In this document: positions 20,224-47,861 of the stretch, in pieces
Layout of the letters: each line of letters begins with the position of its first letter
Numbering within the stretch: position 1 is the first letter of the stretch
Assembly (NCBI GenBank): GCA_017559505.1
Contig: JAFYSF010000056.1
Span: 17,118 to 81,117, forward strand
Reading direction: 5' to 3'
Source of the DNA: Paludibacteraceae bacterium
GTDB taxonomy: Bacteria; Bacteroidota; Bacteroidia; Bacteroidales; Paludibacteraceae
Length of the DNA stretch: 64,000 nt
The notes under the pieces: model-generated
What the model saw: only the letters and a program-made list of their open reading frames with translations
What the model was told of the DNA's origin: nothing
Database searches by the model: none
Position numbers and translations under genes: made by a program

Positions 20224-20285
20224 GGATACATATACTATAAATATACCATAAATATACTATAAATATATGATAAATATACTATAAA
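20224..20285 (+). repeat. 11-bp AT-rich tandem array, copy 1
   Basis: About five units of TAAATATACTA with variants TAAATATACCA and TAAATATATGA, preceded by ACCTTCAACATAGGATA and ended by TAAAGCAACC. Related arrays at 47704-47774 and, inverted, at 59778-59842. Confidence 0.85.
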
Positions 20286-20344
20286 GCAACCTGCACCCTT
20301 ACCAACAAAATATTTTCAATTATTATAAAAACCTTCTCCAAACA

Positions 20345-23218: not shown

Positions 23219-24463
23219 ATGAAAAGTATATTGTTAAATCAACTTGAAGAACGTAACAGACTATTAAGTCAGCAATACGTTGAACGAATAAACAACTACG
23301 ACATACAATCCTTATTACAAAACCCAATGATAAAACTTATCACAGGGCCTCGCCGTGTCGGTAAATCTGTATTTGCACTCATAATGCTCAAGCAAACTAA
23401 TTTTGCATATCTCAATTTCGACGACAACCAACTATTAAACAATTGGGACGAAAATTTAGTAATGCACACCCTACAAGAAATATATCCAGATTATAAATAT
23501 CTATTATTAGACGAAGTCCAAAACCTCAAAGATTGGGACTTATGGGTTAGCACTCTCTATCGCAGAGGCTACAATCTTATCATTACAGGTAGCAATGCCC
23601 GCATGTTAAGCCAAGAAATGGCAACCGTCTTAACTGGGAGATACATCCCTATCATGATGCTACCCTTCAGTTTACAAGAAACATTACAATTACATAACAT
23701 AAAGCTATTCAACATACCAGAAGAAAAAAAAGCAGAAAGCGACCTTCTTCAAGAAGAATATCTATATCAAGGAGGATATCCCGAAGTAGCAAAAGTTCGC
23801 AGCATCTCCCGAACATATTTAAGTACATTATATGACTCAATACTCCTAAAAGACATCGCTCAACGCCATAAGATTCGCAAAACTGAAGAGTTATACACAA
23901 TAGCAGGATACCTATTAGCTAATTTCTGCAATCTATTTACAACAAACGACTTAACTGCAGAATTTGGCATGAAAAGCGTTACAACCACACAAAAATACCT
24001 CAATTATCTCAACGAACCGTATCTATTCTTCTATCTACAACGCTTCAACAATAAATTCAAAGTAATGAAAAAAGCGGCTCGTAAAGTATATGTTGTTGAC
24101 AATGGTTTTATCGACAATGTAGGTTTCCAATTATCCGAAAACAAAGGTCGTCTTCTTGAAAATCAAACATTCATAGAACTAATACGACAAGGTTACAACA
24201 CCGAAACCTCGATATTCTACTATCATTCGCGCAACAATAAAGAGGTCGATTTCGTCACTCGCAAAGGCACAAAAGTAGAACGACTAATACAAGTATGTTA
24301 CGACCTTTCATCCGAAAAAACACGCAAACGCGAAATTGACTCCCTCCTTGAGTGCGCCGAGGAACTACGTTGCAACAACCTATACATAGTCACCTACAAT
24401 CAAGAAGAAACAATACAAATAGGCACACAACAAATTCAAGTCATCCCGTTTCATAAACTTTAA
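23219..24463 (+). CDS. AAA ATPase with DUF4143 domain (ATPase 1)
   Basis: 414 residues. P-loop GPRRVGKS at 43-50, Walker B YLLLDEVQ at 94-101, sensor-like ITGSNARML near 122-130, then a winged-helix region and a C-terminal DUF4143 domain of PD-(D/E)XK-like fold. The acidic residue in EVDF is kept, but the usual E-x-K is IQVCYD, so nuclease activity is unlikely. The cellular role of the family is unsettled. The gene is flanked by two near-identical terminator hairpins, giving it the appearance of an inserted cassette. Confidence 0.88.
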   Translation: MKSILLNQLEERNRLLSQQYVERINNYDIQSLLQNPMIKLITGPRRVGKSVFALIMLKQTNFAYLNFDDNQLLNNWDENLVMHTLQEIYPDYKYLLLDEVQNLKDWDLWVSTLYRRGYNLIITGSNARMLSQEMATVLTGRYIPIMMLPFSLQETLQLHNIKLFNIPEEKKAESDLLQEEYLYQGGYPEVAKVRSISRTYLSTLYDSILLKDIAQRHKIRKTEELYTIAGYLLANFCNLFTTNDLTAEFGMKSVTTTQKYLNYLNEPYLFFYLQRFNNKFKVMKKAARKVYVVDNGFIDNVGFQLSENKGRLLENQTFIELIRQGYNTETSIFYYHSRNNKEVDFVTRKGTKVERLIQVCYDLSSEKTRKREIDSLLECAEELRCNNLYIVTYNQEETIQIGTQQIQVIPFHKL

Positions 24464-26226: not shown

Positions 26227-27936
26227 TTAATCGATATAATCTCTCATACCAAAATCATGACCTTTTCTACGAGTTACCATTTCAGAAGGTAATGTTTTTT
26301 GGACATCAGGTTCGAATGCATAATTAAATACGTCTGCTATAGTTTTTATAACATTCAAAAATGTATTATTAAAAATATAAACAAAGCACTCTATTCTTAA
26401 AGTAAAAACATTTTCGGCTTTAATAAAATGAGCTATATTTGCAGAACTAACAGCATACCATTCATTTTTATCAGCGTGCAAATCAAACTTTTCTGAAATT
26501 TCAGCCTCCATTTTATTATACATTTTATCAAAAGCTTCGTAATTAACAATACGAGCTTTCGGATCATCGTATGAAGCATCGTGCTTTTTAGAGTTATAAC
26601 AAAAATGGAATTGCGTTGGTCTATTTCTCAAGCCAGTTGCGCCCAAAATTGGTATAACCCAACTATCTGGTTTTGAAGACAAACGATTTATATCCTCAAT
26701 AAATAATTTCAAATTAGGACAATCATCGACATTTGTAATATTATAATAAGTAGTTGGATCGTCAGGATTGGTTTCAATATCCTTTGCAACATAATTAAAA
26801 CCACCCAATTTAGCAATATGATAAGCTAACCAACTTGACATTGGTTCAGAATATCCAGATGTACTAACTATAGTCACTTTAGAACCTCTATCTATACATG
26901 CCCCATACGGAGTATTAGAGAAATAATTGATAACAACCAAATTGTCTTTTGGATTATCTTGAGGGTTAGATGCCTCTGCCAAATTATACAGATGGAGACA
27001 GTCTGAAGCTTCTACTGCTTTAATTATATCATCTTCAGCAATAAATTTACGAGTTGTGATAGTTTTAATCTGCTTATAACGAGGTACACAAAACAAATTT
27101 GTATGCTGTTGATCTTTTTCAAATTTAAATAAGCGCACAATGCGTTCTATATTATCAGAAATCTCTTTTTCTTTAGCGTCTTCTTCCATTACTTCAGTAA
27201 ATGCTGAACCGATGAGACCGGCAGGTACGGCGAAGATAGCGATACCGAGGATACCGATGATAGTGGCGATTAAACGCCCAACGAGAGTAATAGGAGGAGT
27301 GTCGGCAAAATTACCTGGATCGCCAATATACTGAGCAAAAGCCCAAACAACTGACGTCCAACCATTAGCATAAACCTCTGGTTGCGCTTCGTGTTCGACA
27401 AAAAACAATATGAACGATAGAATAAGAGTCACGATAGAGAGGAACTGAAGGGAAACAATCATCTCGCGTTTTTTGGAAGATATGGCACGCGACAAAATGC
27501 TAAATGCCTTCATATAACGGAAAACACGCAAAAGGCGAGCAATACGCAATGCCTTGAGAGCTACGTAAGGCACAGGCATAAAGAAGTGGAGATAGAATGG
27601 ATAGGTAGAGAGAATGTCTATCAATCCATAGAATGTACAACAATATTTGATTCTACCCCAAAAACCTTTGTATTTATCATCGATTTGATCAGCACACCAA
27701 ATACGCAAAGTGACCTCGATAGTAAAAAATAAGGTTGTAAGTATATCAACAAAATGCAGTATTTTGCCATATTGTTCTACAACACTATCATACGTTGAGA
27801 GAAATACCTCAATAGTTGATAATACAATAAATCCAAGAATGACATAGTCTAAATAGTTATGCCACTGTTTTGTGCGTAGATTATCATCAAATACACGAGC
27901 GAGTTCTTGTTTAAGATTTTTAATTTTTGAGTTCAT
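26227..27936 (-). CDS. Voltage-gated-type ion channel with unusual filter and large cytoplasmic domain
   Basis: 569 residues. Residues about 25-250 form a six-helix channel: S1-S3, an arginine-rich S4 (ALKALRIARLLRVFRYMKAF, 126-145), S5, pore loop and S6. Where potassium channels have TVGYG, this protein has YIGDPG (203-208), so ion selectivity cannot be assumed. Residues about 270-569 form a soluble domain I do not recognise; it does not show the GxGxxG pattern of RCK/TrkA-N. It is third in a pcp-outer membrane protein-channel operon, 12 bp after its neighbour. Confidence 0.78.
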   Translation of the reverse strand: MNSKIKNLKQELARVFDDNLRTKQWHNYLDYVILGFIVLSTIEVFLSTYDSVVEQYGKILHFVDILTTLFFTIEVTLRIWCADQIDDKYKGFWGRIKYCCTFYGLIDILSTYPFYLHFFMPVPYVALKALRIARLLRVFRYMKAFSILSRAISSKKREMIVSLQFLSIVTLILSFILFFVEHEAQPEVYANGWTSVVWAFAQYIGDPGNFADTPPITLVGRLIATIIGILGIAIFAVPAGLIGSAFTEVMEEDAKEKEISDNIERIVRLFKFEKDQQHTNLFCVPRYKQIKTITTRKFIAEDDIIKAVEASDCLHLYNLAEASNPQDNPKDNLVVINYFSNTPYGACIDRGSKVTIVSTSGYSEPMSSWLAYHIAKLGGFNYVAKDIETNPDDPTTYYNITNVDDCPNLKLFIEDINRLSSKPDSWVIPILGATGLRNRPTQFHFCYNSKKHDASYDDPKARIVNYEAFDKMYNKMEAEISEKFDLHADKNEWYAVSSANIAHFIKAENVFTLRIECFVYIFNNTFLNVIKTIADVFNYAFEPDVQKTLPSEMVTRRKGHDFGMRDYID

Positions 27937-29306: not shown

Positions 29307-29463
29307 AATAGTTATATATAAACAAAATAAATTAGAAAAAACTTGTATAATTCAAAAAAACTCAGTAACTCTGTACGCTATTCTGTTATGATTATAACAA
29401 TTCAAATATTCTTTAGTATATTTCTGAATTTAAATTTATCGTAATTATTGTTACTATAATATT

Positions 29464-29548
29464 TTGCTTAACCTATTAAGCAGATTTGCTATGAAATTGC
29501 TTAATCTATTAAGCAAATTTATTGAAAATTATTTGTTTTATTAAGCAA
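29464..29548 (+). promoter_or_regulatory. Triple palindrome array upstream of ATPase 2
   Basis: Three 20-bp sites at 29464, 29497 and 29529; the best is TTGCTTAATCTATTAAGCAA. Spacings are 33 and 32 bp. The third site overlaps the -33 element of the ATPase promoter, as expected of a repressor operator. The same layout with the same spacings occurs at 31328-31412. The rest of the 29307-29636 spacer shows no gene. Confidence 0.8.
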
Positions 29549-29563
29549 AAATTTGTAACTTTG
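29532..29563 (+). promoter_or_regulatory. Promoter of ATPase gene 2
   Basis: TTTG, 20 bp, TAACTTTG; -33 lies inside the third palindrome. It is about 74 bp before the start codon. Confidence 0.75.
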
Positions 29564-29636
29564 CGACAAATTTATGGCAAACTTGCCACAAAAAAGAAAT
29601 ATAATAGCAAATAAAAACGAGTAAATGCTTGAATAA

Positions 29637-30890
29637 ATGGAAATTAAACGAGATTTATACCTAACAAAATTAATTCAATCTAAAGAAAATGGATTAATCA
29701 AAGTCGTAACAGGATTACGCCGTTCTGGTAAATCGTATTTACTAAAAACTCTTTTCAAAACTCATTTATTAGAAACTGGAGTTGAGGCAGACCATATATT
29801 AATTATTGATTTAGAGAACATACGTAACAAAGCTTTTTTAGATATTAATTATTTCATAAAATGGTTAGATGAACATATACAAGACAACAAAACACATTAT
29901 TTGATAATTGATGAAATACAAAATATACCTAACTTTACAGAACTACTTGGAGGATTAGTAACGACAGAACACCTAGACGTATATGTCACAGGGAGTAACT
30001 CTCATTTACTAAGTTCAGATGTTGCTACAGAATTTCGCGGTCGAGGAGAAGAAATTCATCTATATCCTTTATCTTTTGCAGAATTTTGTTCTGTATATTC
30101 TGGAAACGAAGTTGATGCCTTACAAGAATATATTACTTATGGTGGTCTTCCATACGTACACACACTGCCAAATGATGAAAAAAAATCCAACTATTTAGAA
30201 CAAATTTATCGTTCTGTATATTTAAGAGATATTTTTGAAAGATATACTATTGAAAATCCTAAAGAATTTCAAGAATTATTACGAATTTTATCATCATGTA
30301 TAGGTACGCCTCAAAATGCCAATAAAATTGCTAATACATTCAAAACAATAAAAAAGCTACAAGCAATTACACCAAAAACGATTGACAATTATATAAATCA
30401 CATAGAAAATGCATTTCTTTTAGAGGAGGCACAACGCTATGACATCAAAGGTCGTCAATATATTGGTAATTTATCTAAATACTATTTCCAAGATTTAGGT
30501 TTAAGAAATGTGATTCTACATTTTCGACAAATAGAAGAAACACACTTAATGGAGAATCTACTTTATAATCAATTACGTATGCTTGGATATCAAGTAGATG
30601 TTGGTAATATTCCTATTCGTACAACTATCAATGGAGAACAAAAACGTTCTAATTTAGAAATTGATTTTATAGTTAATCGAGGTTCACAGCGCTATTATAT
30701 ACAATCGGCATGGCGTCTGCCCGACGCAGAAAAACGAGAGCAAGAAATTCGTCCTTTCATCAATGTAGCAGATTCATTTCCAAAGATTGTAATTGTTGGG
30801 GAACAAATGAAATTGCGTCGTGACGAAAATGGTATAATCTACATTAGCATCTATCAATTTTTGAAAGAACCACAAATAGTATTAAACTAA
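29637..30890 (+). CDS. AAA ATPase with DUF4143 domain (ATPase 2)
   Basis: 417 residues. P-loop GLRRSGKS at 26-33, Walker B YLIIDEIQ at 88-95, sensor-like VTGSNSHLL, and a C-terminal DUF4143 domain in which the acidic residue of LEIDF is kept while the E-x-K position reads IQSAW. It is similar in layout to ATPase 1 but with clearly diverged sequence. It stands between a triple palindrome array and a hairpin that both have counterparts around ATPase 3. Confidence 0.88.
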   Translation: MEIKRDLYLTKLIQSKENGLIKVVTGLRRSGKSYLLKTLFKTHLLETGVEADHILIIDLENIRNKAFLDINYFIKWLDEHIQDNKTHYLIIDEIQNIPNFTELLGGLVTTEHLDVYVTGSNSHLLSSDVATEFRGRGEEIHLYPLSFAEFCSVYSGNEVDALQEYITYGGLPYVHTLPNDEKKSNYLEQIYRSVYLRDIFERYTIENPKEFQELLRILSSCIGTPQNANKIANTFKTIKKLQAITPKTIDNYINHIENAFLLEEAQRYDIKGRQYIGNLSKYYFQDLGLRNVILHFRQIEETHLMENLLYNQLRMLGYQVDVGNIPIRTTINGEQKRSNLEIDFIVNRGSQRYYIQSAWRLPDAEKREQEIRPFINVADSFPKIVIVGEQMKLRRDENGIIYISIYQFLKEPQIVLN

Positions 30891-30902
30891 ACATTATATT
30901 AT

Positions 30903-30967
30903 TTCAAAGAACGATTTTATATTTGTAGGCATTCAAGGGTTCAATCTTGAATGCCTTATTTTTTCGT
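30903..30967 (+). terminator. Hairpin unit downstream of ATPase 2
   Basis: Stem GGCATTCAAG (30928-30937) / CTTGAATGCC (30946-30955) followed by a T-run on the plus strand; preceded by TTTCAAAGAAC. Homologous units are at 32930-32975 and 34706-34748. Confidence 0.8.
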
Positions 30968-30987
30968 TTTGCCTATTTTATTATAAA

Positions 30988-31230
30988 TTATTTACATCGC
31001 TTCAATGCTTCTTTGGCATCTTCGATATAACGTTTGATGCGTTCGATGTCGCGGTCGTGCGAAGCTGCACGGTCGATTTTATTTTTACGATAAGTTGCTT
31101 TAGACGAAGGAGTAGAAGCACGTTTAATTAAATCGGCATAACGAGCATTGTCACGTTTCTTTTCTTCTTTTTCTTTAGCCAAATCGGCACGCAAATCAAT
31201 AATTTTTTTGCGGTAATACTCTTTACTCAT
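30988..31230 (-). CDS. Small charged coiled-coil protein of unknown function
   Basis: 80 residues, about 45 percent charged, predicted as one or two long helices (KIIDLRADLAKEKEEKKRDN and ERIKRYIEDAKEALKRCK). No membrane segment or signal peptide. It lies tail-to-tail with ATPase 2 and head-to-head with ATPase 3, sharing the palindrome array as divergent control region. No named family recognised; the regular codon use and start favour a real gene. Confidence 0.65.
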   Translation of the reverse strand: MSKEYYRKKIIDLRADLAKEKEEKKRDNARYADLIKRASTPSSKATYRKNKIDRAASHDRDIERIKRYIEDAKEALKRCK

Positions 31231-31327
31231 AATTTTTTAAGATTTAAAGGTTAATAATGTCACTCTACTTTGGCACAGGTTGCTTACACCTATGGAAAGA
31301 TATCTTTTTCAGTCTATATTTGTAATT

Positions 31328-31412
31328 TTGCTTATTACATTAAGCAAAATTCACATAAAATTACTTATTGCATTAAGCAAATATTTATAAAATTGCTTGT
31401 TTTATCAAGCAA
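31328..31412 (+). promoter_or_regulatory. Triple palindrome array upstream of ATPase 3
   Basis: Sites at 31328 (TTGCTTATTACATTAAGCAA), 31361 and 31393, again 33 and 32 bp apart. It sits in the divergent spacer (31231-31572) between the 80-residue protein and ATPase 3, which holds no other gene. Confidence 0.8.
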
Positions 31413-31468
31413 AAAGTTATACAATTTGAATATTTTTCTTTATCACAATAAAAATATCACAACAAATA

Positions 31469-31500
31469 ATTGTGTATATCAAATAATTGCACTATCTTTG
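31469..31500 (+). promoter_or_regulatory. Promoter of ATPase gene 3
   Basis: ATTG, 20 bp, TATCTTTG, about 72 bp before the start codon. Confidence 0.7.
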
Positions 31501-31572
31501 CACTGAAATTATAGTAACCACCATTACGGTAATTACCATTACTATAACTAAACACGTATAACTTTTTACATT

Positions 31573-32895
31573 ATGAAATTCTATAATAGAGAAAATGAAT
31601 TAGAGCTACTACAAGAGATTGTACAACTATCGCAAAGCGCGTCACAAATGACAGTGCTAACAGGTCGTCGCCGCATTGGAAAAACAAAGTTGCTACTACG
31701 AGCAACTGAAAAGATGCCATGTGTATATTTTTTTGTATCACGCAAAAGCGAAAGCATATTGTGCAACCAATTTGCTACCGAAGCATCGCAAGCACTGAAT
31801 GTACCGATTGGCAATTACAATCGTTTTGCAGACTTATTAGAGCACTTAATGCGCATCTCGACATTGCAACCATTCACGCTTATCATCGACGAATTTCAAG
31901 AGTTTGTGAATATTGAAAAGTCTATTATCGGTGATATACAACGAGTATGGGACTTAAACAAAGATAAAAGTCGCATAAATTTATTGGCAAGTGGTAGTAT
32001 ATACTCGATGATGCACCACATTTTTGAAAACGAAAAAGAGCCACTATTTTCACGAGCAAGCAATATCATACATCTTCAATCATTCAGAACTGACACTCTC
32101 AAAGAGATTCTTGCCGACCATAATCCTAATTATACTGCCGAAGATTTATTAGCACTATACACATTCACGGGTGGCGTTGCATGGTATGTTGAACTGCTGA
32201 TGAATGCACGAGCTGTAACCTTCAAAAAAATGGTTGACCATATTTTCCGTGAAAATTCATTATTCCTCAACGAAGGCAAAAACCTACTAATTGAGGAGTT
32301 TGGCAAAGATTATAGCATCTATTTTTCGATTTTAGAATGTATTGCACGAGGTATAAATACACGAGGTGATATATCTAATGCGATAGGAATTCAAGAAATA
32401 GGAGGTCATTTAGCACGATTGGAACGAGATTTCAATATTATTCGTCAAATTCGACCTATATTCAGTAAACCATCCACTAAGACGGTAAAATATTATATTG
32501 CCGATAACTTTCTAACATGTTGGTTTAGATTTATCTATAAGTATATCAATTATATAGAATCAGGCAATATAGAGTTGCTAAAACAGGTATTTATGCGCGA
32601 TTACCCTACTTTTTCAGGTCAGATGTTAGAGCGTTATTTCCGTCAGCAAGCAATCGAAAGTCATCAATATACCACAATAGGCAACTATTGGAATCGCAAA
32701 GGCGAAAACGAAATAGATATTATCTTGGTGAATGAAATAGACAAAATATTACAGATTGGAGAAATCAAACGCCAAGCAAAAAATATTGATATGGAATTGT
32801 TGCGCTCGAAAGCTGACTATTTCTTGTCAGTTCACCCTGAATTGCAATCGTATCAATTAGAATTATGCGCATTATCATTGGATGATATTCTCTAA
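31573..32895 (+). CDS. Archaeal-type AAA ATPase with DUF234 domain (ATPase 3)
   Basis: 440 residues. It begins FYNRENELELL as in ATPases of the archaeal type; P-loop GRRRIGKT at 31-38 and Walker B TLIIDEFQEF at 102-111. The C-terminal DUF234 part has a PD-(D/E)XK-like pattern NEIDIIL with IGEIK, so the nuclease-like residues are intact, unlike in ATPases 1 and 2. It shares flanking elements with ATPase 2 despite belonging to another subfamily. Confidence 0.87.
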   Translation: MKFYNRENELELLQEIVQLSQSASQMTVLTGRRRIGKTKLLLRATEKMPCVYFFVSRKSESILCNQFATEASQALNVPIGNYNRFADLLEHLMRISTLQPFTLIIDEFQEFVNIEKSIIGDIQRVWDLNKDKSRINLLASGSIYSMMHHIFENEKEPLFSRASNIIHLQSFRTDTLKEILADHNPNYTAEDLLALYTFTGGVAWYVELLMNARAVTFKKMVDHIFRENSLFLNEGKNLLIEEFGKDYSIYFSILECIARGINTRGDISNAIGIQEIGGHLARLERDFNIIRQIRPIFSKPSTKTVKYYIADNFLTCWFRFIYKYINYIESGNIELLKQVFMRDYPTFSGQMLERYFRQQAIESHQYTTIGNYWNRKGENEIDIILVNEIDKILQIGEIKRQAKNIDMELLRSKADYFLSVHPELQSYQLELCALSLDDIL

Positions 32896-32909
32896 TTCTA
32901 CTCTACAAT

Positions 32910-32975
32910 ATTTCAAAGAACACATTTATATTGTAGGCATTCGGGCGGTCAAGCCCGAGTGCCTTAATTTTTTTT
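32910..32975 (+). terminator. Hairpin unit downstream of ATPase 3
   Basis: TTTCAAAGAAC, then stem GGCATTCGGGC (32936-32946) / GCCCGAGTGCC (32953-32963) and eight T on the plus strand. It is the counterpart of 30903-30967. Confidence 0.8.
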
Positions 32976-32980
32976 GCTAA

Positions 32981-33295
32981 TTATTTACCTGCAGCAACGA
33001 GAGTAGCAGAGTTATCAGCCAAAGCAGAGTCATCTGCGTTAGCAACTTGAACACCGATACCATACATTTCAGCAACTTTTTTCTCGAAGTTACCCACTTG
33101 CATGTTACCACCTACTGCGAGTTCGCCACCTTTAGCGTCTTTAGCACGGATAGAAGCCAAAGTAGCTTCATCGTCAGCAAATGCACCTTTACAAGTTATG
33201 CTTTTGTAAACGCGAAGAGTTGAACCAAATGCTTTTTTGAATTCGTTTTTCAAGGTTTTCACTTTCATGTTACCTTTCAATGCAATTTCTGCCAT
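32981..33295 (-). CDS. Small two-repeat protein (paralogue of the 34749 gene), unknown function
   Basis: 104 residues with an internal duplication: GNMKVKTLKNEFKKAFGSTL and a partner GNMQVGNFEKKVAEMYGIGV, each followed by a short acidic stretch and a TLxxI/TLVAA ending. The same two-repeat plan occurs in the 121-residue protein at 34749-35114. A small alpha/beta fold is likely; I cannot name a family. It lies downstream of the PD-(D/E)XK gene, 35 bp away, probably in one transcript. Confidence 0.7.
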   Translation of the reverse strand: MAEIALKGNMKVKTLKNEFKKAFGSTLRVYKSITCKGAFADDEATLASIRAKDAKGGELAVGGNMQVGNFEKKVAEMYGIGVQVANADDSALADNSATLVAAGK

Positions 33296-33330
33296 AGTAA
33301 TAAATTTTTAGTTAGTTAATGCCTACTCTT

Positions 33331-34521
33331 TTAGGATTTTCGGCTACGTCCTTTTATCCTTTGTAAAAATAAATGTTTCATATCTTCATATAAATCGTCA
33401 CTAATATCTTTTGTATGTGGATATAACGCATTAACGAAATCACGAAAATAGATATCTTCTTTATATTCTTTTTGTTTTACACAAAAATCATAAACTTGCT
33501 TATAATAAATTTTCTTATAAAAACATCCCGATTTGTATACACTCAAATCAATGTCATTATAATTTGGAGTTAACAAATAAAATGCAGTATCCCAACCCTT
33601 TTCTTTTGCCTCTTTTTTAGCAAATTCATAATACTTTTCGAGTTGTGTACGATCTAATTGGTTCGATTTACGATTAAAAATTAAACCATTTATATGAGAT
33701 TTCACCTTATTCTCAACAACAACGATTTTATTTCCTCCTCGAATCAATAAGTCAATATTTCCCTCCTCGCGCGCAACATCAAAATCGGTTGAGAAGCTAC
33801 ACCCAAGCTCTTCTTTGGCAAAACGAACTAACAAATCGGGATATCGTTCCATAAAAAAAGCAAACGCATTAGAAAAAGCCAATTCATTAGAAGATACACC
33901 ACAAATATCAAAATATGTAATATCCCTTTTATCGACATCTTTCATTTCGACTTTATCCACCCCATTATTCCATAGACTAATATCATTAATCTTCTCTTGC
34001 AGTGCAATATAGTCATTAGGTGTGAGTTCGTAATCAATATATTGTTTAAGAGATGCTTTTGCCTGCTTATTTTCGGTCAACACCACAGTATCAATCCCAT
34101 CCTTATCAAACGACACATATAAAGGTTTAATAGGGCGACTAACACGCTCGGCCTTATATGTCAAATAGACATATTGATACTCATTTTCTATAAAAAGTTC
34201 ATTAAGCAAAACACCTGCATATCGTACATCGTTTTCAACAATATACTTAATCTGATCTTCAGCAGTTTGTTTTGGGTGATAAATTTCTGTAATTCCCTCT
34301 GCCTTCCCAAGCACTTCAAGCATTTTTCGACCAGGCAAAGAGCGAACAAGAAGCACACAACCAACCTTATCTTGTTGCGAAACATGGAACGTTCCTGAAT
34401 GTTGCAAATAGATATAATGAGAACCATTATCTGATTGATAAAGATTTATTATCTCATGACCCAAATTATCGTTAAGATAATCGCCATTATACATTCTATT
34501 TAAAACGATTTTTTTATTCAT
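33331..34521 (-). CDS. PD-(D/E)XK nuclease-like protein
   Basis: 396 residues. The C-terminal half carries a nuclease-type core: an acidic helix around residue 213 (SSNELAFSNAFAFFM), Asp257 in GNIDLLI, then VVVENK with Glu270 and Lys272, and QLDRTQLEKYYEF. This fits the PD-(D/E)XK superfamily family often annotated in Bacteroidota. The N-terminal 200 residues are not recognised. Being among small proteins and ATPases it could belong to a defence or stress locus, but this is inference. The end IKGRSRKS is partly duplicated near 34674-34708. Confidence 0.75.
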   Translation of the reverse strand: MNKKIVLNRMYNGDYLNDNLGHEIINLYQSDNGSHYIYLQHSGTFHVSQQDKVGCVLLVRSLPGRKMLEVLGKAEGITEIYHPKQTAEDQIKYIVENDVRYAGVLLNELFIENEYQYVYLTYKAERVSRPIKPLYVSFDKDGIDTVVLTENKQAKASLKQYIDYELTPNDYIALQEKINDISLWNNGVDKVEMKDVDKRDITYFDICGVSSNELAFSNAFAFFMERYPDLLVRFAKEELGCSFSTDFDVAREEGNIDLLIRGGNKIVVVENKVKSHINGLIFNRKSNQLDRTQLEKYYEFAKKEAKEKGWDTAFYLLTPNYNDIDLSVYKSGCFYKKIYYKQVYDFCVKQKEYKEDIYFRDFVNALYPHTKDISDDLYEDMKHLFLQRIKGRSRKS

Positions 34522-34547
34522 AATTTAAATTTTAAACAACTATCCTA

Positions 34548-34643
34548 TTAATCGAATAATACGCCATTTTTCAATACAGACACTCTATTAACTTCAGCGA
34601 TATTGATAGTATATTCGCCATAAGATGCGGTTTTCTTTGCCAT
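34548..34643 (-). CDS. Very small ORF in the nuclease cluster
   Basis: 31 codons starting MAKKTASYGEYTINIAEVNR, followed 27 bp later by the nuclease gene. Its upstream leader resembles that of the 104-residue gene (shared AAAAGAGTAGGCA and ATG-GCA start). It may be a real peptide or the 5' remnant of a deleted gene. Confidence 0.4.
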   Translation of the reverse strand: MAKKTASYGEYTINIAEVNRVSVLKNGVLFD

Positions 34644-34673
34644 GATAAATTAGATTTTAAGTATTTTCTGCCT

Positions 34674-34708
34674 ACTCTTTTAGATTTTCGGTATCTTCCT
34701 TTTATTTG
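34674..34708 (-). repeat. Partial duplication of the nuclease-gene 3' end
   Basis: On the minus strand this stretch reads like codons IKGRYRKS plus the following leader, matching 33322-33358 at most positions. It suggests loss or duplication of a second copy of the nuclease gene. Confidence 0.6.
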
Positions 34709-34748
34709 TAGGCAAACGGGCGGTCAAACCCGAATGCCTTATTTTTTA
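34706..34748 (+). terminator. Third hairpin unit (GTAGGCA type)
   Basis: Stem GGCAAACGGG / CCCGAATGCC with two internal mismatches, and a T-run on the plus strand. Like the other two units it abuts the 3' end of a minus-strand small-protein gene, but there is no plus-strand gene to terminate. Confidence 0.65.
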
Positions 34749-35114
34749 TCAATACTCACCACGCGCGGCTTTGCCGAGTGTAATTTCGTTTGGCACAAGG
34801 ATTTTGCCTGTTTTGTCCTTGATTTGAACTGTTACGCCAAAAGTTTCGTCGAAGAGTTTTTCGGCATCGCCTACTTTTGTGCTACCTTTGATTTTGAGGG
34901 CATCGGCAGATGCTTTTTTCACTTCTTTAGTCGTTTTTTCGTTCAATTGATTGAGTGTCAAATCGCCATCGGCTATTTGTTTGCCTTTGTAAAAAACAAG
35001 TGACAAATCGAACGCAGCCATGAAATCGGCTGAAATTGTTTTCAATTTTTTGTTTGGAGCAACTGTAAATTCCGCTGAATTAAAACGGTCTTTAATACTA
35101 TCAAAAAGTCCCAT
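34749..35114 (-). CDS. Small two-repeat protein, unknown function
   Basis: 121 residues. After MGLFDSIKDRFNSAEF two related segments follow: KKLKTISADFMAAFDLSLVF and TKVGDAEKLFDETFGVTVQI, the second ending ITLGKAARGEY. The pattern (short strand, helix with F-x3-F, hydrophobic strand) parallels the 104-residue protein at 32981. No named family recognised; no signal peptide. Confidence 0.68.
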   Translation of the reverse strand: MGLFDSIKDRFNSAEFTVAPNKKLKTISADFMAAFDLSLVFYKGKQIADGDLTLNQLNEKTTKEVKKASADALKIKGSTKVGDAEKLFDETFGVTVQIKDKTGKILVPNEITLGKAARGEY

Positions 35115-35141
35115 AATTGTAAATGTTTTTTTAAGTTAATA

Positions 35142-35303
35142 TTATTTTCTTTTTTTAGTTACTGCTTTGAGAATTGCACCTCCGATTTTACGTTCGAGAC
35201 CTTGACGTGTGGTTGGGATGCCTACGGCGTGTGCTACTTTGTTTTTTAGACCAGAGATGCCTACGGCACGTTTTAATGAAAAGCTTAATCCTGGAATTTT
35301 CAT
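35142..35303 (-). CDS. Small basic protein (KRAVGI type), unknown function
   Basis: 53 residues, strongly basic (MKIPGLSFSLKRAVGISGLK, then TTRQGLERKIGGAILKA, ending KKRK). The ATG at 35303 follows an A/T-rich leader; the stop lies 27 bp before the 121-residue gene. Similar short basic proteins with the SFSxKRAxGI-TTRxGxxRKIG pattern are, to my recollection, common in Bacteroidota; nucleic-acid binding is plausible from charge only. Confidence 0.65.
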   Translation of the reverse strand: MKIPGLSFSLKRAVGISGLKNKVAHAVGIPTTRQGLERKIGGAILKAVTKKRK

Positions 35304-47703: not shown

Positions 47704-47774
47704 TAAATATACTATAAATATACCATAAATATACCATAAATATACTATAAATATAGGATAAATATACTATAAAG
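47704..47774 (+). repeat. 11-bp AT-rich tandem array, copy 2
   Basis: Six to seven units of TAAATATACTA with variants ending ACCA and AGGA; flanked by ACCTTCAACATAGGATA and TAAAGCAACC exactly like copy 1. It lies 21 bp from the MITE-like element's target duplication. Confidence 0.88.
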
Positions 47775-47861
47775 CAACCATCGCCCAAGCCCCGCCACCC
47801 CTCTCTCATCACTCAAAACAAGAAAAAAAACAAATCACTTTCACATTCCAACTTTTTTTCG

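What the first reader, a model, noticed from the sequence alone, without database searches (positions are those of the whole stretch)
29464..35303. Modular ATPase / small-protein / nuclease locus with shared flanking elements
Seen directly: two ATPase genes of different subfamilies (DUF4143 at 29637, DUF234 at 31573) have the same upstream array of three palindromes with identical 33/32-bp spacing and the same kind of downstream unit (TTTCAAAGAAC plus a GTAGGCA hairpin). Each hairpin abuts the 3' end of an opposite-strand small gene (80, 104 and 121 residues). The locus continues with a PD-(D/E)XK nuclease-like gene and a 53-residue basic protein. Inference: ATPases are exchanged between fixed control elements, as in defence or conflict systems.
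Basis: partly seen in the sequence, partly recalled or inferred. Interest (0 to 1): 0.8.

Follow-up and report, generated by a model that had tools for sequence, protein, structure and literature searches.

The report
ATPase genes with private DNA repeats
In the genomes examined, many genes of a very common but uncharacterised ATPase family carry, just in front of them, their own set of evenly spaced DNA repeats that the protein itself likely grips to control its own gene, and in this locus two different ATPase genes carry the same set.

Summary
Two ATPase genes (DUF4143 type, PADLOC PDC-S01; DUF234 type, PDC-S27) share a triplet of palindromes, TTGCTTAA-N4-TTAAGCAA, at 33/32 bp; exact copies occur nowhere else in this genome, and the GTAGGCA hairpin (up to 2 mismatches) only three times, all here.

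The larger result: upstream triple-repeat arrays were found at 84 of 140 such ATPase entries, mostly DUF4143 (genus plus wider samples), 60 of 78 relatives in named bacterial and archaeal records, and 22 of 25 loci of three archaeal genomes, against 9 of 119 control genes. Repeat sequence differs from gene to gene; spacing is quantised (22-24, 32-33, 40-41 bp) and follows the ATPase clade. In the best-sampled clade repeat sequence co-varies with the winged-helix and PD-(D/E)XK-like domains (exploratory). The DUF234 clade mostly lacks triple arrays (7 of 30) and has a double palindrome instead.

Best reading: the array is the operator of its own ATPase, which likely binds it as a phased oligomer and represses its own gene. 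The window pair carries an array type otherwise seen before a third clade, so shared control is likely. Hairpins belong to the neighbouring small-protein operon; a defence role is untested.

The parts
29464..29548 (+). Array 1: three palindromes TTGCTTAA-N4-TTAAGCAA (29464-29483, 29497-29516, 29529-29548), spacing 33/32; the third lies just before a TAnnTTTG promoter-like box at 29556-29563 (consensus recalled)
   Evidence: not reached by 100 shuffles, reached by 2 of 60
29436..29460 (.). GTAAT/ATTAC element, like the own element of the DUF234 clade
   Evidence: inverted repeat I4, 84% complementary to 31508-31532; relatives by eye
29575..29588 (.). palindrome TGGCAAACTTGCCA followed by an A-tract, likely the own element of this DUF4143 clade
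   Evidence: seen by eye, with counterparts before L079, L093, L209, L210, L213; no statistic was run
29637..30890 (+). ATPase 1: AAA_14 + DUF4143 (PDC-S01); C-terminal D...QSA in place of D...ExK
   Evidence: model pLDDT 85.8; nearest listed folds 2qen and 2fna
30902..30956 (+). TTTCAAAGAAC (30902-30912) and hairpin (30925-30956), terminator-like
30988..31230 (-). 80-aa charged protein, part of a conserved small-protein neighbourhood
31328..31412 (+). Array 2: three palindromes at 31328-31347, 31361-31380, 31393-31412, spacing 33/32
   Evidence: also before the 95% identical gene of G124 (L078/L240)
31508..31548 (.). GTAAC-N4-ATTAC-G-GTAAT-N4-ATTAC element between a TATCTTTGC box and the ATG: the clade's own element
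   Evidence: by eye: same layout before L241-L247, gene-specific variants before others
31573..32895 (+). ATPase 2: ATPase_2 + DUF234 (PDC-S27); invariant E380-I-D382...E397-x-K399, PD-(D/E)XK type
32911..32964 (+). TTTCAAAGAAC (32911-32921) and hairpin (32933-32964), terminator-like
32981..33295 (-). 104-aa two-repeat protein; homologues in 19 of 150 family genomes; neighbour, not part of the ATPase modules
33331..34521 (-). PDDEXK_4-like gene, variable cargo of the small-protein locus
34708..34739 (+). third hairpin, no ATPase beside it
34749..35114 (-). 121-aa protein, a relative of the 104-aa protein
   Evidence: (104-aa query finds it at E 3e-6)
35142..35303 (-). 53-aa basic protein, recurs in the neighbourhood

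Best explanation
The two window genes belong to the PDC-S01 and PDC-S27 ATPase families; genes of the first kind commonly carry an upstream array of three or more repeats with gene-specific sequence and clade-specific spacing, and this array is likely the operator that the encoded ATPase itself binds to repress its own gene. Shown: arrays, spacing, orientation and association with the ATPases; the AAA+ / winged-helix / PD-(D/E)XK-like architecture comes from profiles, motifs and predicted models. Inferred: an oligomer docks on repeats placed close to whole helical turns apart; the winged helix and the C-terminal domain read the variable bases and the protein's build sets the spacing; binding over or beside the promoter keeps the ATPase scarce until a signal, perhaps infection, changes its state. 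Divergent repeats would let many paralogues (up to 32 DUF4143 matches in one genome) live together without cross-talk. In this window the rule is bent: both ATPases carry an array of the type otherwise found before a third, 398-aa clade, as well as clade-own elements, so the two genes are likely under one shared control.
For: Arrays not reached in 100 shuffles: 84 of 140 ATPase entries (mostly DUF4143 type; one gene is in twice, as L025 and L157) against 9 of 119 other genes taken from the window and L078-L097 (Fisher p 5e-20); 60 of 78 usable of the 80 best-matching loci in named genome records; 22 of 25 usable of 30 loci from three archaeal genomes, of which three repeat loci. Spacing of regular arrays by clade: L013 clade 32.7-bp class 28 of 28 (2 more irregular), L019 clade 7 of 7 (1 irregular), L100 clade 22.5-bp class 17 of 19 (2 irregular), L018 clade 5 of 5, L021 clade 40.5-bp class 3 of 4; the archaeal arrays fall in the same classes (the archaeal 23-bp proteins match the clade seed only weakly). 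Exactly 3 copies in 49 of 75 and 45 of 57 regular arrays (the search itself asks for at least 3). The L013-clade repeat is bipartite (TCGCTTG - A-tract - nTGT) and lies on the gene's strand in 78 of 84. Local protein identity, with overall identity held constant, tracks repeat similarity in the winged helix (28 proteins, p 0.0005); per half-site, block 2 tracks the winged helix (p 0.006) and block 1 the C-terminal domain (p 0.002), the AAA+ part about zero (63 proteins). L013's repeat has 3 copies at its own gene and 1 elsewhere in the genome. The model of ATPase 2 resembles PABY2304, SSO1545 and ORC/Cdc6.
Against: No binding or expression data. In the second sample the winged-helix signal (r 0.13) stayed below the permutation threshold and the peak lay in the C-terminal domain; with both samples pooled the C-terminal domain leads over all pairs and the winged helix leads only below 50% identity (p 0.015). 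In the 23-bp clade the winged-helix peak was not significant (p 0.11-0.15) and N-terminal windows came close (0.33 against 0.36). One search made eight tests without correction; relatedness is only partly controlled. 56 of 140 entries have no array by this statistic: among proteins of 330-391 aa only 6 of 26 have one, and outside the genus only 10 of 42. Among 30 DUF234-clade genes only 7 pass, some of them irregular; their double palindrome was seen by eye. In the clade of window ATPase 1 only the window gene itself passes, 1 of 6, and its G066 orthologue (89% identical) has no TTGCTTA array. No other gene in this genome shows a TTGCTTA array, so the protein that reads the window arrays is unknown. 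Arrays lie upstream of the promoter-like box in 38, downstream in 24 and across it in 5 of the 67 of 75 arrays with such a box, so repression is not the only possible effect.
Confidence: 0.6

Rival explanations
1. Iteron-like site: the ATPase is initiator-like, and the array is where it assembles to act on DNA (replication, maintenance or movement of a small selfish element), with autoregulation secondary.
For: Iterons (recalled) are phased direct repeats private to each Rep gene. The fold resembles ORC/Cdc6. 32 DUF4143 matches in a 1.5-Mb archaeal genome; relatives in 60 plasmid and 12 phage records (arrays not checked there). The DUF234 gene is present in G000 and absent in G066 between the same small genes.
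Against: No terminal repeats or target duplication noticed by eye at that one presence/absence pair (no alignment run). No replication function was found, but none was looked for; the scored arrays lie within about 330 bp of one ATG because only that stretch was scored.
Confidence: 0.17
2. The arrays are operators for separate regulators encoded elsewhere, or for one other ATPase clade; the window arrays would be sites of a 398-aa clade protein such as L026.
For: TTGCTTA arrays in G428 and G436 precede 398-aa clade genes; L026 in this genome is 60% identical to the G428 protein, with repeats differing by about one base per half-site.
Against: As a general account it needs a separate regulator for each of about ten arrays in this genome, and does not explain clade-specific spacing or co-variation with the adjacent protein. 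For the window pair alone it is quite possible; L026's recognition helix differs from that of the G428 protein at the first residue (T, not N; by eye).
Confidence: 0.13
3. The repeats act in the RNA leader (attenuation, antisense or a binding site in the mRNA).
For: In 24 of 67 arrays with a promoter-like box the repeats lie downstream of it.
Against: In 38 of 67 they lie upstream of it; near whole-turn spacing fits double-stranded DNA.
Confidence: 0.05
4. Chance or low-complexity repeats in AT-rich promoters.
For: Control genes also show 9 of 119 array-like regions, three of them from a dispersed AT-rich repeat.
Against: Enrichment with p 5e-20; equal spacing in 66 of 84 ATPase arrays against 4 of 9 controls; the same spacing classes in three samples.
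Confidence: 0.02

Closest known systems
PDC-S01 and PDC-S27 (PADLOC phage-defence candidates; ATPase fused to a PD-(D/E)XK-type domain)
   Same: The window proteins match the models; PMC12988326 (found passages and section 20 read) describes the same architecture and says most PDCs lack experimental validation.
   Different: No array or operator is mentioned in what I read; defence activity is not shown for these genes.
SSO1545 (2fna) and PABY2304 (2qen), archaeal ATPases of solved structure
   Same: Best structural matches over residues 1 to about 320 and 1 to about 295.
   Different: The alignments do not cover the C-terminal domain; sequence identity 16-20%; no phmmer match among PDB sequences at E 0.01.
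Plasmid iterons with Rep autoregulation (recalled)
   Same: Phased direct repeats, private to each gene, next to the gene of their binding protein.
   Different: Spacing here depends on the ATPase clade; no origin was looked for.
Archaeal Orc1/Cdc6 with origin recognition boxes (recalled)
   Same: AAA+ plus winged helix, repeated DNA sites near the gene.
   Different: ATPases here carry a PD-(D/E)XK-like domain and sites that differ from gene to gene.
Toxin-antitoxin operators (recalled)
   Same: Palindromic arrays over the module's own promoter.
   Different: No partner gene in the same direction beside either window ATPase.

Membership tests
PDC-S01 (window 29637-30890) | match to the PADLOC model over full length | tested here: met
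   E 4e-118, residues 3-411 of 417
PDC-S01 (window 29637-30890) | AAA_14 with DUF4143 | tested here: met
   115.1 and 58.4 bits, above cut-offs 27 and 28.1
PDC-S01 (window 29637-30890) | intact D...ExK nuclease motif | tested here: not met
   D343...Q356-S-A in this clade, invariant in 22 sequences; the L013 clade has D378...E391-x-K393 invariant in 21. That this motif would define PDC-S01 is my assumption, not taken from a call.
PDC-S27 (window 31573-32895) | match to the PADLOC model; ATPase_2 with DUF234 | tested here: met
   E 1.2e-43; 50.9 and 47 bits, above cut-offs
PDC-S27 (window 31573-32895) | D...ExK nuclease motif | tested here: met
   E380-I-D382 and E397-x-K399 invariant in 25 sequences
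PDC-S01/S27 as defence systems | protects cells against phage | not testable with these tools
iteron-controlled replicon | phased repeats private to the adjacent gene | tested here: inconclusive
   phasing shown; privacy tested for two arrays only: L013's has one extra copy, the window array serves two genes
iteron-controlled replicon | replication origin or Rep domain | not tested
   no origin search made; no Rep family among the hits
autogenous operator | bound by the protein of the adjacent gene | tested here: inconclusive
   co-variation only
toxin-antitoxin module | second, neutralising gene in the same operon | tested here: inconclusive
   none in the same direction beside either window ATPase; relatives not surveyed

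The most novel reading that the evidence does not exclude
PDC-S01-type ATPases are a hypervariable set of self-addressed AAA+ nucleases: each protein and its DNA address of three or more sites co-evolve as a lock and key, with spacing set by the protein clade and conserved from bacteria to archaea. Dozens of mutually blind copies share a genome, and loss or capture of an address, for example by an invader, is the trigger that frees the enzyme. The shared address in this window makes two different ATPases answer to one lock.
Probability: 0.25. Interest if true: 0.95.

Novelty: new variant of a known kind. Interest (0 to 1): 0.84.

Why it matters
PDC-S01 is reported as the fourth most common defence across all prokaryotes (PMC12988326, passages read) and as the most frequent individual locus in a rumen survey (PMC13356809, passages read), yet most such candidates lack validation. 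Many of these genes turn out to carry their own evenly spaced DNA arrays, with the same few spacings in bacteria and archaea. That gives a direct handle: the likely DNA ligand of each protein can be read off the genome, binding can be assayed at once, and the protein-DNA pairs give a data set for a recognition code of a winged helix plus a PD-(D/E)XK-like domain. The window adds a test case in which two different ATPases share one array.

Tried and rejected
Palindrome scan with a wrong register: fewer matches than the reversed control; redone with the right one. The upstream statistic (three 16-mers) misses palindromes with free centres (L021, L024, L026 by eye) and asks for three copies by construction. 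Start codons were taken as the first ATG of the frame. Direct similarity of the two window ATPases: nothing beyond the P-loop, so the shared array is not explained by recent duplication of the genes. Hairpins as part of the ATPase module: rejected. Winged helix alone as reader of the repeats: found in the first sample, not reproduced in the second; the two-domain split was looked for after that and its direction was opposite to my guess, so it is exploratory. 21 of 84 arrays were left out for weak or reversed register. The 7-member 32-bp clade had no power. Dropped for too little upstream sequence or no clear start: 6, 2 of 80, 5 of 30; the number dropped was not recorded, and 2 of its 142 candidates were left out as not of the family. 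The 78 hold 77 distinct proteins, one of them a fragment of 126 aa; most are metagenome-assembled genomes, so a taxon label may be wrong for some. Overlap between the unnamed and the named genomes was not checked, except that three archaeal loci carry the same arrays as L353, L360 and L363. No PDB chain covering the C-terminal domain was among the rows shown with a full span; that is not evidence of a new fold.

Literature searches: DUF4143 (1 paper), DUF234 (26), SSO1545 (39), PDC-S01 (59: 3 papers), AAA_14 with winged helix (60), guilt-by-embedding and PDC (84), COG1373 (85, 86), AAA+ ATPase with direct repeats and autoregulation (96). No title or abstract start listed mentions such arrays. 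Only PMC12988326, PMC13356809 and PMC5760070 were opened (found passages; one section of the first). Absence from print is claimed for these searches only.
Full report
CHECK OF THE FINDING. The two ATPases, the palindrome triplets, the 33/32 spacing, the TTTCAAAGAAC motif and the hairpins are at the stated places. In the 2.34-Mb assembly (96% complete) the exact palindrome occurs only in front of these two genes, and the hairpin with up to 2 mismatches only three times, all in this locus, with a fourth place at 3 mismatches. The host is likely close to Paludibacteraceae by its best protein matches.

WHAT BELONGS TO WHAT. Relatives of the 104-aa protein occur in 19 of 150 family genomes. In many of the 20 stretches fetched around them, relatives of the 80-, 121- and 53-aa genes recur with varying genes between, often near a putative channel gene (named by eye). 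In G066 the DUF4143 ATPase is present and the DUF234 ATPase absent from the same place; hairpins are there all the same. So the small-protein locus and its hairpins are one thing, and the ATPases look like insertions beside it. TTTCAAAGAAC follows these two ATPases in all four ends seen, but not other ATPases of the same loci.

THE GENERAL PATTERN. Looking upstream of the DUF4143 matches of this genome (15) showed that most have their own short repeat array. I scored the best triple of 16-mers in the 330 bp upstream against 100 dinucleotide shuffles. Arrays: 84 of 140 ATPase entries (one gene is in twice); own genus 74 of 98, this genome 10 of 14, outside the genus 10 of 42. Controls: 9 of 119 non-ATPase genes of the window and L078-L097. 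Proteins of 330-391 aa have arrays in 6 of 26, those of 412-519 aa in 63 of 81. In the DUF234 clade 7 of 30 pass.

FURTHER SAMPLES. A scan of GTDB genomes with the L013-clade alignment kept the best 80 of 582 relatives; 60 of 78 usable loci have arrays, with gaps of 33 (79 times) or 32 (26 times) leading. By record title they include Bacteroidota, Bacillota, Treponema, Desulfovibrio piger, Coriobacteriia, Lentisphaeria and archaea; most are metagenome bins. In three archaeal genomes with 10, 32 and 19 DUF4143 matches, 22 of 25 usable of 30 fetched loci have arrays, gaps mostly 23-24 or 32-33; three of these loci repeat.

SPACING GOES WITH CLADE, SEQUENCE WITH GENE. Among regular arrays the 32.7-bp class holds 28 of 28 of the L013 clade and 7 of 7 of the L019 clade; the 22.5-bp class 17 of 19 of the L100 clade and 5 of 5 of the L018 clade; the 40.5-bp class 3 of 4 of the L021 clade; 2, 1 and 2 arrays of the L013, L019 and L100 clades were irregular. 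These gaps are close to whole helical turns. Exactly three copies: 49 of 75 and 45 of 57, though in the L100 clade only 8 of 19. The L013-clade repeat is bipartite with a constant A-tract and points the same way as the gene in 78 of 84. In this genome the L013 repeat occurs three times at its own gene and once elsewhere.

WHO READS IT. Repeat similarity follows local protein identity in the winged helix in the first sample (28 proteins, p 0.0005). In the second sample (56 proteins) the peak is in the PD-(D/E)XK-like domain (p 0.001) and the winged helix is weak; pooled, the C-terminal domain leads (p 0.001), and below 50% identity the winged helix (p 0.015). In the 23-bp clade (17 proteins) the winged helix peaks without significance (p 0.11-0.15), N-terminal windows close behind. 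Splitting the repeat gave block 1 with the C-terminal domain (p 0.002), block 2 with the winged helix (p 0.006; 0.022 below 60% identity), the A-tract with nothing significant, and the AAA+ domain about zero (eight uncorrected tests). This favours self-binding through two domains but is exploratory and only partly corrected for ancestry.

THE WINDOW PAIR. The DUF234 clade has its own palindromic element between promoter-like box and start codon (by eye), present before ATPase 2 and, in part, before ATPase 1. ATPase 1's clade seems to have a palindrome plus A-tract beside the start codon (by eye). The TTGCTTA triplets come on top: this array type is otherwise found before the 398-aa clade (G428, G436). 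The DUF234 gene of G124 has it too, the 69%-identical gene of G008 does not. So the two window genes are likely under one shared control. Its reader is unknown: the only close 398-aa clade member found here, L026, is 60% identical to the G428 protein but has slightly different repeats of its own.

VERDICT. A real and general feature, found through an unusual instance of it. The autorepression step, the oligomer and any defence role are inferred. On checking, the claim for the DUF234 family was narrowed (7 of 30), and confidence lowered from 0.62 to 0.60 for that reason.

Noticed in passing
window 20229-20296 and 47704-47787: A dispersed AT-rich repeat (ATAAATATACTATAAATATACC...) in 22-bp phase with like flanks, before unrelated genes; it made three of the nine control hits.
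   Followed up: partly
window 34548-34643 (-): A 31-aa ORF before the nuclease-like gene, perhaps a truncated remnant of a longer small protein (MAKK...GEY start) at the same place in L078 (translated by eye).
   Followed up: partly
window 32981-33295 and 34749-35114: The 104- and 121-aa proteins are relatives with no Pfam match; the 104-aa query found 1096 proteins. Function unknown; varying genes sit near them in relatives.
   Followed up: partly
window 26227-27936: A 569-aa putative channel protein (named by eye) has relatives beside the small-protein genes in several related loci, sometimes two in a row.
   Followed up: no
G598 (genome of L357): 32 DUF4143 matches in a 1.5-Mb archaeal genome, a very high density for one family.
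   Followed up: no
L154/L238 (G436): The TTGCTTA-type array seems to run on for many units over several hundred bases upstream of the 398-aa ATPase (by eye).
   Followed up: no
398-aa clade: First residue of the recognition helix: N or Q mostly goes with GC in the half-site, S or T with GT, in the few arrays compared by eye; L224 (N, but GGTTA) is an exception.
   Followed up: no
window 23849-24295 (G000:C62:40966-41412): A further DUF4143 ATPase of this window (L020) has no array by the statistic (16 of 100 shuffles reach it), only an imperfect inverted repeat by eye.
   Followed up: partly
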